Shown: positions 53,279 through 58,049 of the stretch, one piece after another
Position numbering within the stretch: the stretch's first letter is position 1
How the letters are laid out: each line of letters starts with the position of its first letter
DNA from: Candidatus Endomicrobium procryptotermitis
GTDB taxonomy: Bacteria; Elusimicrobiota; Endomicrobiia; Endomicrobiales; Endomicrobiaceae
NCBI GenBank assembly: GCA_031279415.1
Contig: JAITIP010000018.1
Span: forward strand, 186,001 to 250,000
DNA length: 64,000 nucleotides
Direction of reading: 5' to 3'
Position numbers and translations under genes: made by a program
Notes under the pieces: generated by a model
Database searches by the model: none
Told to the model about the DNA's origin: nothing
The model's input: the letters and a program-made list of their open reading frames with translations, nothing else

Positions 53279-54343
53279 ATGAAAAGAACTTATTTGTATG
53301 AAAGCCACATAAAACTCGGCGCAAAGATGACTGAGTTCAGCGGCTGGGAAATGTCACTGCAATATTCGTCGATAATCGAAGAACATAATGCCGTCAGAAA
53401 CAATTGTGGAATTTTCGATACTTCGCATATGGGAACTTTTATAATTTCAGGAAAAGACAGTGGAGATTTTTTAAACAGAGTTACGGTTTCTGATATGAAA
53501 AACCTTCCCTGCGGGAAAGCCAAATATTCGATGATTTTAAATGAAGATGGAGGCATTAAAGACGATATCGTAATTTATAAATTCGAAAACGAATACATGG
53601 TGGTTGTCAATGCCGGAAATGCGGAGAAAGATTTTCAGTGGCTTGATAATTTGAAATCAGGCGATACCGAACTTAAAAATATAAGCGCGGAAATATGTCT
53701 TTTGGCTTTACAGGGACAGCAATCCGCATCAATAATGCGTACTTTATCTGAAACAGACACGGATAGTTTAAAATATTTTATGTGTTCGCCTCTAAAATTA
53801 AAAAATATTAACGCTTCGTTTTGCGCAATCGCTAGAACAGGATATACGGGAGAAGACGGTTTTGAAATTTTTATTTCGAAAGAGCAGTCGAAAATGTTGT
53901 GGGACGAATTAATTAAGCTTGGAGTAAAGCCCTGCGGACTTGGCAGCCGCGATACTTTAAGATTGGAATCCTGCATGCCTTTGCATGGACATGAAATAGA
54001 TGAAAACATAAACCCCATTGACGCGGGTTTTGAAAAAATTATATACTGGAAAAACAATTTTATAGGAAAGGATAAACTTTTGGTGATAAAAGACAAGCCT
54101 TCAAAAAAATCCGTTGCTTTTGAATGCGACGGAGGAATAGCAAGGAATGGAAATAAAGTTTTTTATGTCGGCGAAGAAGTGGGATATGTTACAAGCGGAA
54201 CTTTTTCTCCTACGCTGAAAAAAGCGATAGGGTTGGCATTTGTCGATATTAATATCGGTAGCTGCGAAATAGAAATAGAAATCCGCAATAATAAGAGGAA
54301 AGCGTATATCGTAAATAAACCTTTTTATAGAAGGATAAAATGA
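53279..54343 (+). CDS. gcvT: Glycine cleavage system T protein (aminomethyltransferase)
   Basis: Transfers the methylene unit from lipoyl-bound aminomethyl to tetrahydrofolate, releasing ammonia. The 354-residue protein shows MTEFSGWEMSLQY, GIFDTSHMG, the catalytic-Asp segment GGIKDDIVIYK, NAGNAEKDFQW, RTGYTGEDGFEIF and GLGSRDTLRLE. gcvH and gcvP are not in the window. Its stop overlaps the next gene by four bases. Confidence 0.94.
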   Translation: MKRTYLYESHIKLGAKMTEFSGWEMSLQYSSIIEEHNAVRNNCGIFDTSHMGTFIISGKDSGDFLNRVTVSDMKNLPCGKAKYSMILNEDGGIKDDIVIYKFENEYMVVVNAGNAEKDFQWLDNLKSGDTELKNISAEICLLALQGQQSASIMRTLSETDTDSLKYFMCSPLKLKNINASFCAIARTGYTGEDGFEIFISKEQSKMLWDELIKLGVKPCGLGSRDTLRLESCMPLHGHEIDENINPIDAGFEKIIYWKNNFIGKDKLLVIKDKPSKKSVAFECDGGIARNGNKVFYVGEEVGYVTSGTFSPTLKKAIGLAFVDINIGSCEIEIEIRNNKRKAYIVNKPFYRRIK

Positions 54344-55059
54344 AAAAATTAATTCCGGTTATTAGCGTATTATTTTTTATAAGTTTTGTTTACGGTCAAA
54401 AATTATCGACTTTGGAAAAGATGGTTGAAATCTCTATTGAGATAACCGAAATAAACGAAAACAAATCCGTGGAATTAGGAATTAAATGGCCTAGCGAAGC
54501 TTCCGCTGGAGAAACAGTAATACCGTCGATTATCGAATCAGGTGAATGGGCAAGAGTTACAAAATATGCCGCGACTTTAAAAGCCTTGGAAACGGCGGGC
54601 GCGGCGGAGGTGTTGTCAAAGCCGAAGATTGTAACAAAATCATCGACTACGGCAAGATTTATGGTCGGAGGCGAGTTTCCGATAGTTGCTACTGAAATAG
54701 GCACAAGTAAAATAGAGTGGAAAGAATACGGCATTATAATGGATATTACTCCGATTGTATTAAGCGACAGCAGAATAGATATAAAATTAAAAACTGAACT
54801 TTCGCGTCTTGATTATAATGTGCCAGTCAGCGGATACCCATCTATAGCTAAAAGAGAGGCTGCTTCGCATCTTCAATTAAAAGACGGCGAAACTATGGTT
54901 TTGGCGGGACTTATAGAAACTACAAAAGGAACTACAAAAGAAGGCATACCTATTTTAAGCGATATTCCGATTCTCGGCGCTCTTTTCAGCGTGCAGAAAA
55001 ACAATAAAACTAAAATGAATGTTTTAATTTTTGTCACTACCAAAATACTTGAACAGTAA
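54340..55059 (+). CDS. Short secretin-domain protein (CpaC/RcpA-like)
   Basis: A 239-residue exported protein with a signal peptide (residues 1-19). The rest is almost entirely a secretin core: VEISIEITEINENKSVELGIKW, EVLSKPKIVTKSSTTARFMV, GGEFPIVATE, the EYGIIMDITPIV strand and LKDGETMVLAGLIETTKG with PILSDIPILGALF. The N0/N1 domains of full-size type II or Tad secretins are missing. It is followed by three TadE/TadG-like genes, so it may form a small outer-membrane pore for them; this is inference. Confidence 0.75.
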   Translation: MKKLIPVISVLFFISFVYGQKLSTLEKMVEISIEITEINENKSVELGIKWPSEASAGETVIPSIIESGEWARVTKYAATLKALETAGAAEVLSKPKIVTKSSTTARFMVGGEFPIVATEIGTSKIEWKEYGIIMDITPIVLSDSRIDIKLKTELSRLDYNVPVSGYPSIAKREAASHLQLKDGETMVLAGLIETTKGTTKEGIPILSDIPILGALFSVQKNNKTKMNVLIFVTTKILEQ

Positions 55060-55061
55060 AA

Positions 55062-55298
55062 ATGGAATCTAAAATTTTAAACTCTAAAGGACAGACATTT
55101 GTAGAATTTCTGCTTGTTTTTATCGTTTTGTTTACAGCGTCAAGCGGAGTTTTTACGATGTATAAAAAAGTCTGGAAGACACGATATGAGAAAACGGGCG
55201 TTTATTCGGGAACGCTTGCCACATCGGCAAAAATTTCCGGCGCGGGAGACGTTGATTTGCCTTTGATTGGAAAGATAAAAACGGATTATGTGAAATGA
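55062..55298 (+). CDS. Small TadE-like pseudopilin
   Basis: A 78-residue protein with a basic N-terminus and the prepilin-like junction KGQTFVEFLLVFIVLFTASSG, a Gly followed by Gln-x-x-Val-Glu and one hydrophobic helix. The short C-terminal part has no recognisable fold. It overlaps the next gene by four bases and fits a pilus- or secretion-type assembly with the secretin upstream. Confidence 0.65.
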   Translation: MESKILNSKGQTFVEFLLVFIVLFTASSGVFTMYKKVWKTRYEKTGVYSGTLATSAKISGAGDVDLPLIGKIKTDYVK

Positions 55299-55933
55299 GA
55301 AAAAACAGTTCCGGACAATCGCTTGTCGAAGCATTATTCACAGTAGTCTTTACGACTGTAATAATGTTTTCTTTTTTACAGGTATGCATAATAGTCGTTG
55401 ACGATATGTCCGCAAATGAAGCGGCCTTTACTGCCATGCGTTCTGCCGCAGTTACAAAATCTTCTAAAAGAGAAGAAGAAGCCTATGAAAGAGTCAGGAA
55501 CTATTTGTTTTTATTTTATCCGCTGTCAAATATTAAAAGTATTTTTACTCCCAGCAATCTTGTCTATTCTGATAAAAACACCGTGCGAAATTACTTTGGA
55601 AGAAATAGAGATTCGGAAAATTCTGATGAAGACTATGAAACTACTGAAGGATATAATGAAGAAGACAAGAGTGTTACTTTGGAGAGAAACGATAGAAACA
55701 GACCTGCATACAATGATTTTTCGGGAATGGTTATCGACGCTTACACTGTAAAATTTTATTATTTTACCAGAGTTATGTTCGGCTCTTTAGTTGCAAAGCT
55801 TAACTCGAAAAAGGATATAATTTTCGGCGGTGCAAGAAGATATCAGTCTTCTAGAAATAGAATGGTTACTTCTCCTGATGAAGAGTTTTATTACAAGGCA
55901 TATCCAGAGGCAAAGGAATTCTATGAAAAATAA
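55295..55933 (+). CDS. TadE-like pseudopilin
   Basis: A 212-residue protein with the same N-terminal pattern (SSGQSLVEALFTVVFTTVIM). The mature part is highly charged (SENSDEDYETTEGYNEEDK). It resembles TadE-family minor pseudopilins processed by a TadV-type peptidase, but no such peptidase is encoded in the window. The following gene starts 11 bases before its stop. Confidence 0.65.
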   Translation: MRKNSSGQSLVEALFTVVFTTVIMFSFLQVCIIVVDDMSANEAAFTAMRSAAVTKSSKREEEAYERVRNYLFLFYPLSNIKSIFTPSNLVYSDKNTVRNYFGRNRDSENSDEDYETTEGYNEEDKSVTLERNDRNRPAYNDFSGMVIDAYTVKFYYFTRVMFGSLVAKLNSKKDIIFGGARRYQSSRNRMVTSPDEEFYYKAYPEAKEFYEK

Positions 55934-57128
55934 TAGAGGCCAGACATTATATTATTTCCTTATCTTTACGATGATCCTTGTAATAAGCTGGGCAATGATG
56001 CTCAATATAGCAAAGCTCATCAGAGACAGGATGATAATGCAGAATATGGCGGACAATATCGCTCTTTCAATTTCCACGCATAAAGCCAGAACAATGAATT
56101 TTGTCGCTTCATGTAATTATCTTATAGGTACGCTCCTATCTCTTGGAAATCTTCCGTCGCTCGTTCAGCTGCCTTCATACAATACAAGTTCCGTAGGAGC
56201 TTTTGTATTTGGAGACTATAAAAAAAATACTTTCCATAAAGCGTTGGATGATGACGTTGCTAAAATGAAAAAAGTTGTAGAATTTTTGCAGGCTGCGCAG
56301 GAAGAAGCTATGCAGCTACACGCATTGTATCAAGTTAAAACAGTAGGAAGTGCGGTTGCTGACGGATATGCTTTGACAATTTCTCCTATGCAAATGCCTA
56401 CGAAAGCCGCTTCTGAAAAGTATTTTGGACTTAAACGCAATATGAAAGGTATCACCTATATTAAAACTATAAATACACAATTTTCAAACTATCCTCACTT
56501 TGTATATAATCCATTTCCCGGATACGAGCTTTTGGAACTAATAAAAGATGAACTCGGCGATAGTGAGGCTACTATAGTTAAACCTATTTTGGAAATCATA
56601 CTTGAAATATGCGGCGGGTTTCAAGATATGAAAGTTCATTCAAAATCTGATTATTCATGGTATATTACAGACAGAGACAATATACATAAGCAAAAAATAA
56701 AAGTGTCTTTAACGAAACTTTTCCCTAAAAGAAATGACACCCCCTTATTTGCAGGACTTCTGGGCATTGAATATCCAGTGATAACAGTTTTTTCTGCTGC
56801 GGCTATTTATAATACAAAAGGTACGATGTTTCCAAGTCAGGAAAGTGAATTCACAGGTTTCCCAAGCAATGAGTTACAATTTTTACTTGTGCCGATTTAT
56901 GGATATTTAATGATTGAAATGGCAGCTAAATGTATTAAAATAAATAAGCTCTTTGGAGGCATAGTGGGAATACATTTAGCTGCGACATTTTCAGCCCGTT
57001 ACATACAAGGAATGATAGGCGAGGGTAATTCCCCGATAAAAAATTATGAAAAAGCCAAAGGCGGCGGATGGAATGCTCATCTAGTTCCCTATAAAGATAA
57101 AGAAGACAGAAGCGATGATGTCGATTGA
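55923..57128 (+). CDS. TadG-like pilus-assembly protein
   Basis: A 401-residue protein with N-terminus KNNRGQTLYYFLIFTMILVISWA, the Tad-type membrane helix, then MIMQNMADNIALSISTHKARTMN, which is typical of TadG-like proteins. The remaining 330 residues are soluble, extracytoplasmic and unassigned. I take ATG 55923, just before the conserved RGQ motif; an earlier in-frame start is wholly inside the upstream gene. Confidence 0.62.
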   Translation: MKNNRGQTLYYFLIFTMILVISWAMMLNIAKLIRDRMIMQNMADNIALSISTHKARTMNFVASCNYLIGTLLSLGNLPSLVQLPSYNTSSVGAFVFGDYKKNTFHKALDDDVAKMKKVVEFLQAAQEEAMQLHALYQVKTVGSAVADGYALTISPMQMPTKAASEKYFGLKRNMKGITYIKTINTQFSNYPHFVYNPFPGYELLELIKDELGDSEATIVKPILEIILEICGGFQDMKVHSKSDYSWYITDRDNIHKQKIKVSLTKLFPKRNDTPLFAGLLGIEYPVITVFSAAAIYNTKGTMFPSQESEFTGFPSNELQFLLVPIYGYLMIEMAAKCIKINKLFGGIVGIHLAATFSARYIQGMIGEGNSPIKNYEKAKGGGWNAHLVPYKDKEDRSDDVD

Positions 57129-57173: not shown

Positions 57174-58049
57174 ATGAAAAAAACTAAAGGTATAGTTTTG
57201 GCTGGCGGCAGGGCGACAAGATTGTATCCGGTTACGAGCGTCATCAGTAAACAGCTTTTACCAGTTTATAATAAGCCGATGATTTATTATCCTTTATCGG
57301 TATTAATGCTTGCGGGAATACGGGACATTTTGATTATTTCAAATAAGGAAACGCTTCCGCTGATAGAGAAGTTATTCGGCACTGGAAATAAGTTTGGATT
57401 AAACATAAATTACGGACTTCAAAAACAGCCGCGCGGAATAGCCGAAGCTTTAATTATCGGTGAAAAATTTATCGGAAGCGATGATGTCGCGTTGATTTTG
57501 GGTGACAATATTTTTTATGGGCATGGATTTCCAAAAACTCTTGTCAAAGCCGCTTCTAAAGAAGAAGGAGCGACGGTTTTTGCCTATTATGTGAGAGATC
57601 CTGGAAGGTATGGAATAGTGGAATTGGACAAAAATAAAACCCCGGTTTCTATAACTGAAAAACCGGAAAGCCCCAAATCGAATTGGGCTGTAACAGGGTT
57701 ATATTTTTATGATAATGATGTAATAGAAATCGCAAAAAATATAAAACCTTCAAAACGCGGGGAATTTGAAATTACTGATATTAATGAACATTATTTAAAA
57801 ACCGGCAAATTAAGCGTTGAATTATTGGGAAGAGGTTATGCATGGCTTGATGCAGGAACATATGATTCTCTTCTGGATGCCTCTCTTTTTATCAAAACAA
57901 TAGAGGAGAGACAAAATTCCATGATATCATGTCTTGAGGAAATAGCCTACAGAAAGAAATATATTACAGCTGAACAGTTGTTAAAACTTACACAAGGTCT
58001 GCCAAAAGATTATGCGCAATATTTAGACAGATTAATAAGGGAAGAATAG
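57174..58049 (+). CDS. rfbA: Glucose-1-phosphate thymidylyltransferase
   Basis: Makes dTDP-glucose, the precursor of dTDP-rhamnose and related sugars of surface glycans. The 291-residue protein shows [20 protein letters not shown] (with R-A instead of the usual S-G), [47 protein letters not shown] and [11 protein letters not shown]. It is a RmlA-type enzyme. rfbB, rfbC and rfbD are not nearby. Confidence 0.92.

What the first reader, a model, noticed from the sequence alone, without database searches (positions are those of the whole stretch)
54340..57128. Minimal secretin plus three TadE/TadG-like proteins, without a motor
A 239-residue secretin core lacking N0/N1 domains is followed at once by three genes with Tad-type N-termini (GQT-, GQS- and RGQ-led hydrophobic helices), all overlapping or nearly so. 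No TadA ATPase, TadB/C platform, TadV peptidase or Flp pilin is encoded beside them, and the cluster is translationally coupled to gcvT. It may be a reduced Tad machine completed by genes elsewhere, a distinct export or adhesion device, or a relic. The intact frames argue against simple decay.
Basis: partly seen in the sequence, partly recalled or inferred. Interest (0 to 1): 0.6.

Follow-up and report, generated by a model that had tools for sequence, protein, structure and literature searches.

The report
Detached half of a Tad pilus
These four genes encode the outer-membrane ring and three accessory proteins of an adhesive (Tad) pilus whose motor genes lie 64,000 bases away on the same contig; the unusual part is that the ring protein, here and across its bacterial phylum, lacks the domain that in studied Tad pili couples it to the rest of the machine.

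Summary
The genome (an Endomicrobium-like Elusimicrobiota, 2.0 Mb, 100% complete) carries tadE, flp, cpaB/rcpC, a TadZ-like/TadA fusion, tadB and tadC at C18:170861-176235 on the same contig, with no secretin there. Only one other secretin exists, PilQ of a separate type IVa pilus. The window cluster is the missing outer-membrane half: secretin (RcpA/CpaC type), two minor pilins and TadG. In relative G058 both halves form one gene run, and in three relatives tadE sits beside the secretin cluster. The two halves are kept, lost and decayed together across 77 genomes. So this is a complete Tad pilus with a split locus, not a new device or a relic. Tad in Endomicrobium was already reported (PMC8809381).

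What is unusual: the 239-aa secretin has no N-domain and almost no tail after its last strand. The Tad N-domain family PF13629 is absent from all 248 Elusimicrobiota genomes searched. In Pseudomonas this domain couples secretin to RcpC, whose C-terminal hairpin is essential; here the predicted CpaB lacks that hairpin and ends in a conserved helix. How this machine couples its two membranes is unknown. New variant of a known kind.

The parts
54340..55059 (+). Minimal Tad secretin (RcpA/CpaC type), 239 aa: signal peptide plus secretin core, no N-domain, almost no C-terminal tail
   Evidence: PF00263 E 3e-43; RcpA 8odn among the two best PDB sequence relatives; predicted model matches only secretins at E<=0.001 (monomer, mean pLDDT 72, a ring was not modelled); groups with RcpA/CpaC and apart from own PilQ
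55062..55298 (+). ORF2, 78 aa small minor pilin (class III prepilin-like N-terminus GQTFVEF, conserved C-terminal YVK)
   Evidence: Conserved in Endomicrobiaceae; Q and E5 invariant in the family alignment; no Pfam family above cut-off
55295..55933 (+). ORF3, 212 aa TadE/TadF-like minor pilin (GQSLVEAL)
   Evidence: Conserved neighbour across the family and in other Endomicrobiia; no Pfam or NCBIfam hit of its own, so the name rests on N-terminus, position and weak cross-matches to the TadE profile
55923..57128 (+). ORF4, 401 aa TadG-like protein (RGQTLYYF, no E5)
   Evidence: 9 of 18 family members match PF13400 Tad, best E 3e-7; the window copy alone does not
53279..54343 (+). gcvT, conserved upstream neighbour, overlaps the secretin gene by 4 bases; not part of the machine
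   Evidence: PF01571 E 8e-86; synteny
57174..58049 (+). rmlA-like nucleotidyl transferase, conserved downstream neighbour; not part of the machine
   Evidence: PF00483 E 2e-71; synteny in many relatives

Best explanation
The cluster is the outer-membrane and minor-pilin half of a complete Tad (Flp, type IVc) pilus machine whose locus has been split. Shown by sequence: a secretin of Tad type, two minor pilins and TadG here; TadE, Flp pilin, CpaB/RcpC, TadA with a TadZ-like N-terminal region, TadB and TadC 64 kb upstream on the same contig; one prepilin peptidase on another contig. Inferred mechanism: the peptidase cleaves Flp and the minor pilins, the TadABC motor and platform polymerise Flp, the CpaB ring guides the fibre through the periplasm, and the filament exits through a ring of the 239-aa secretin. 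Because the secretin has no periplasmic N-domain and CpaB shows no C-terminal beta-hairpin, the coupling between the CpaB ring and the outer-membrane ring must differ from that in Pseudomonas. The best guess (inference only) is direct docking of the conserved CpaB C-terminal helix on the base of the secretin barrel. The biological role is most likely attachment in the gut or to hosts, possibly DNA uptake.
For: Tad core operon without a secretin at C18:170861-176235, same contig and strand. Only two secretins in the genome, the other belonging to a pilB/pilC locus. G058 has secretin-ORF2-ORF3-ORF4-TPR lipoprotein-tadE-flp-cpaB-tadA-tadB-tadC on one contig; L015, L016 and L020/L115 have tadE beside the secretin cluster. 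Across the phylum the short secretin lies within 10 kb of full-length tadA in 13 of 20 loci read. Co-occurrence in 77 family genomes: 44 both intact, 26 neither, 7 discordant; G044 has stops in both loci. Purifying selection. TadG family PF13400. Tree groups it with RcpA/CpaC, apart from its own PilQ at 100/100.
Against: No expression or imaging data. Seven genomes are discordant, though only one of them is at least 90% complete. A pilotin is not proven: the TPR lipoprotein in the tad operon (C18:176493-177275) has only a weak TPR match. There is no dedicated TadV; the sole peptidase lies near pilT on C38. The docking step is a guess; the CpaB tail is modelled at low confidence.
Confidence: 0.93

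Rival explanations
1. A separate export or adhesion device: the secretin and the three prepilin-like proteins work without the Tad motor.
For: The cluster stands alone beside gcvT and rmlA in most Endomicrobiaceae, and a few genomes show the secretin without an intact tadA (G041, G053, G066, G071, G072).
Against: One contiguous locus in G058 and in other families of the phylum; joint loss and joint decay; the tad operon would otherwise have no secretin. Four of the five secretin-only genomes are under 90% complete, the fifth is in about 340 contigs.
Confidence: 0.03
2. A second outer-membrane ring for the type IVa pilus encoded on C37/C38.
For: The peptidase is probably shared, and the genome has pilB, pilC and pilT.
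Against: That system has its own 439-aa PilQ beside pilB/pilC; the short secretin groups away from PilQ and sits next to tad genes, not pil genes, elsewhere. Family genomes such as G004 and G048 keep the short secretin and tadA but show only one secretin.
Confidence: 0.02
3. A decaying relic of a Tad locus: the short secretin is a truncated remnant.
For: True decay exists in the family: pseudogenes in G044, broken copies in G023, G041 and L039.
Against: The short form is conserved in 37 distinct Endomicrobia sequences and across the phylum. dN/dS is 0.07-0.11 for the secretin and 0.11-0.24 for ORF3 and ORF4. A clean signal peptide opens the protein in nearly every species.
Confidence: 0.01

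Closest known systems
Pseudomonas aeruginosa Tad system, RcpA/RcpC/TadD (PMC10499894, PMC12307814)
   Same: Secretin core, RcpC/CpaB-type alignment protein (CpaB model's best PDB match is RcpC 9gzr), TadA, TadB/TadC, Flp, TadE/TadG.
   Different: RcpA carries a VirB9-like N-domain and a C-terminal tail that binds TadD; RcpC has an essential C-terminal beta-hairpin. Here neither N-domain nor tail is present and the CpaB model ends in a helix. TadZ-like domain is fused to TadA. Locus split.
Caulobacter crescentus Tad machine, CpaC/CpaD/CpaI/CpaB (PMC13170226)
   Same: CpaC is a Tad secretin; CpaB ring; single bifunctional ATPase.
   Different: CpaC has N3 and VirB9-like domains, and a separate N-domain-like protein CpaI bridges to CpaB. 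PF13629 rings in Caulobacter but in none of 248 Elusimicrobiota genomes.
Tad regions previously reported in Endomicrobium and Elusimicrobium (PMC8809381; PMC6668835)
   [quoted passage not shown] proavitum and E. minutum, pseudogenes in Rs-D17.
   Different: The PMC8809381 main text does not mention a secretin. TA26 has this secretin cluster at another locus (L033, the same contig as G004:C16), which supplies the missing piece.

Membership tests
Secretin family (PF00263) | C-terminal secretin core that forms the double beta-barrel | tested here: met
   E 3e-43; model matches 40 secretin structures and nothing else at E<=0.001; a ring was not modelled
Tad (Flp/type IVc) pilus | TadA/CpaF motor ATPase | tested here: met
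   C18:172536-174536, T2SSE E 9e-62; best NCBIfam match TIGR03819 TadA family, E 2e-97, 326 bits, slightly under its cut-off of 373
Tad (Flp/type IVc) pilus | Paired platform proteins TadB and TadC | tested here: met
   Two adjacent T2SSF proteins, 272 and 294 aa, each with one T2SSF domain above cut-off
Tad (Flp/type IVc) pilus | Flp pilin | tested here: met
   56 aa, GQGMVEY cleavage site, PF04964 E 8e-7 (29.2 bits, just under cut-off 32.2); conserved in 25 loci
Tad (Flp/type IVc) pilus | CpaB/RcpC alignment protein | tested here: met
   PF16976 62.3 bits over 28.8; TIGR03177 129.7 over 71; model matches 9gzr
Tad (Flp/type IVc) pilus | TadE/TadF/TadG minor pilins | tested here: met
   TadE PF07811 E 8e-11 in the distant operon; ORF4 family PF13400 in 9 of 18; ORF2 and ORF3 assigned by N-terminus and synteny only
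Tad (Flp/type IVc) pilus | Prepilin peptidase | tested here: met
   One Peptidase_A24 in the genome, C38:50204-50551, near pilT; no dedicated TadV beside the tad genes
Tad (Flp/type IVc) pilus | TadZ (ParA/MinD-like) localisation ATPase | tested here: inconclusive
   TadA N-terminus shows a ParA/CbiA domain in other Elusimicrobiota families; in this genome that region is diverged, with no P-loop and no Pfam match
Tad (Flp/type IVc) pilus | TadD pilotin | tested here: inconclusive
   TPR lipoprotein beside the tad operon with only a weak TPR match; a clearer TPR lipoprotein sits inside the G058 locus
RcpA/CpaC-type Tad secretin | Periplasmic N-domain (PF13629 / VirB9-like) | tested here: not met
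   No residues to hold it; PF13629 in 0 of 77 family and 0 of 248 phylum genomes, present in Caulobacter and in plasmid Tad secretins. Hence: Tad secretin by linkage and kinship, but a minimal variant
RcpA/CpaC-type Tad secretin | Sequence kinship with RcpA/CpaC rather than PilQ | tested here: met
   Tree: branch between PilQ and the rest 100/100; short secretins form one group with weak support 74/56

The most novel reading that the evidence does not exclude
Elusimicrobiota run Tad pili through a secretin stripped to its barrel: no N-domain ring, almost no pilotin-binding tail, and a CpaB ring that ends in a conserved helix or stops right after domain 2. Their outer- and inner-membrane halves would then be joined by a new interface, or not stably joined at all, making this one of the simplest trans-envelope pilus conduits and a phylum-wide exception to the RcpA N-domain/RcpC hairpin coupling.
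Probability: 0.45. Interest if true: 0.6.

Novelty: new variant of a known kind. Interest (0 to 1): 0.4.

Why it matters
It removes an apparent orphan (a secretin without a motor) and supplies the secretin for the Endomicrobium Tad system described in the literature as 'near-complete'. If the pilus works, a whole phylum assembles Tad pili with a secretin that lacks the domain which couples it to the alignment ring in Pseudomonas. That makes the open question of how Tad machines bridge the two membranes testable in a naturally minimal system.

Tried and rejected
The window's ORF2, ORF3 and ORF4 alone give no family hit above cut-off; a family alignment was needed for TadG. A sequence profile of CpaB finds no PDB chain at E<=0.01; the fold search does. 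The idea that translational coupling to gcvT is meaningful was dropped: the overlap is lost in many relatives. A separate N-domain protein was sought through PF13629 and not found, but a CpaI-like protein of diverged sequence would be missed. A search of other phyla for short secretins was not possible with genome handles; among four plasmid Tad secretins three are 456-465 aa with N-domains, and the fourth (L158, 339 aa) looks truncated or mis-started. Among the papers found in the open-access library none was seen to report Tad secretins without an N-domain; no paper holds both 'Endomicrobium' and 'Tad pili' as phrases.

Full report
Check of the observation. The four frames are as described. 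54340-55059 is a clear secretin by profile (PF00263, E 3e-43, residues 82-237), with nothing but a signal peptide and a short linker before the core. The next three genes overlap or abut, and each begins with a short stretch, G|Q and a hydrophobic helix; E5 is conserved in ORF2 and ORF3 and absent from ORF4.

Where the motor is. The window is G000:C18:186001-250000 of a 2.0 Mb, 100% complete assembly whose nearest relatives are Endomicrobium MAGs. The genome has two secretins: this one, and one of 439 aa on C37 beside pilB and pilC. About ten kilobases outside the window, on the same contig and strand, ends a Tad core operon: TadE (C18:170861-171400), a 56-aa Flp pilin (from 171491), CpaB/RcpC (171681-172529), TadA (172536-174536), TadB, TadC (to 176235), then a TPR lipoprotein and an outer-membrane-barrel-like protein. 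Pfam and NCBIfam support TadE, Flp, RcpC/CpaB, T2SSE and two T2SSF. No secretin lies there. The only prepilin peptidase found is on C38 near pilT. The two loci fit together: one lacks what the other has.

Are they one machine? Three lines of evidence say yes. First, physical linkage: G058 carries, on one 17-kb contig, secretin, ORF2, ORF3, ORF4, a TPR lipoprotein, tadE, flp, cpaB, tadA, tadB and tadC in that order; in L015, L016 and L020/L115 tadE sits beside the secretin cluster. In other families of the phylum the short secretin lies within 10 kb of a full-length tadA in 13 of 20 loci read, often directly between cpaB and tadA. Second, co-occurrence: in 77 family genomes both are intact in 44, neither in 26, discordant in 7 (transcribed). 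Of the discordant genomes only one is at least 90% complete. The 1.1 Mb, four-contig G044 has stop codons in both loci. Relatedness inflates the Fisher p-value (2e-13). Third, sequence kinship: the secretin groups with RcpA/CpaC and away from the PilQ of its own genome, branch 100/100, and RcpA is one of its two best PDB sequence relatives.

Selection. dN/dS against L011, L015 and L108 is 0.07-0.11 for the secretin, 0.11-0.24 for ORF3 and ORF4 and 0.19-0.48 for the short ORF2 (dS is near saturation in several comparisons, so these are rough). This is not a relic in this genome. Decay does happen in some relatives (L039, L110/L111, G023, G041).

The minimal secretin. In the 37 distinct Endomicrobia sequences the mature chain begins at or within about fifteen residues of (E)QMVEISVEITEINENK, and the protein ends a few residues after the last strand. 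The same short form, 238-293 aa in the loci read, occurs across the phylum. Studied Tad secretins have more: P. aeruginosa RcpA has a VirB9-like N-domain and a C-terminal tail whose last four residues bind TadD (PMC10499894); C. crescentus CpaC has an N3 and a VirB9-like domain, bridged by CpaI (PMC13170226). The Pfam model of the Tad secretin N-domain, PF13629, rings in Caulobacter and in four of four plasmid Tad secretins (one partial) but in 0 of 77 Endomicrobiaceae and 0 of 248 Elusimicrobiota genomes. In P. [quoted passage not shown] The Endomicrobium CpaB model matches RcpC (9gzr, E 2e-11) but after domain 2 shows only a low-confidence loop and a helix, residues 258-279, with no hairpin; the tail QKEALEIINKY is well conserved in the family. 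In several other families CpaB stops right after domain 2. Absence of the N-domain and of a recognisable hairpin thus go together. CpaB tails vary in other phyla too, so this is suggestive, not proof.

How it probably works. Shown: the parts list and its linkage. Inferred from the known Tad pathway: peptidase cleavage of Flp and minor pilins, polymerisation by TadABC, guidance by a CpaB ring, exit through a secretin ring. Unknown: how the two rings meet. My preferred, untested guess is that the CpaB C-terminal helix docks on the barrel base.

Known or new. Tad regions in 'Ca. Endomicrobium agilae' TA21/TA26, E. proavitum and E. minutum, and decay in Rs-D17, are published (PMC8809381), as are Tad systems in Elusimicrobia generally (PMC6668835). 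I found no report of the split locus, of the secretin being the detached part, or of N-domain-less Tad secretins; the library searched is open-access only. I file it as a new variant of a known kind: it meets the Tad membership features tested, except that the secretin has no N-domain, and TadZ and the pilotin remain unresolved.

Noticed in passing
L040:8536-10536 (C18:172536-174536); L150:10503-12725; L153:10430-12622: TadA proteins of the phylum are 583-794 aa in the loci read because of an N-terminal ParA/MinD-like (TadZ-like) region fused to the motor. The P-loop is intact in other families (GPKEGVGKT) and not recognisable in Endomicrobiaceae.
   Followed up: partly
L140:10504-11562; L141:4518-5567; L142:8455-9522; L146:10393-11610: A second, short TadA-type ATPase (349-405 aa) without the TadZ-like region lies just downstream of the short secretin in some non-Endomicrobiaceae genomes; the window's genome has none.
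   Followed up: no
55062-55298 and homologues: The small minor pilin ORF2 ends in YVK or YVR in nearly all Endomicrobiaceae, while homologues in other families end in a GxxP-like tail. Function unknown.
   Followed up: no
G058:C51 (L107) and G058:C67 (L106): This genome carries two secretin clusters, one stand-alone and one inside a full Tad locus, suggesting either duplication or acquisition.
   Followed up: partly
G041:C11 and C25: One intact and one broken secretin copy in the same assembly, with a broken tadA; possibly a mixture of two strains.
   Followed up: no
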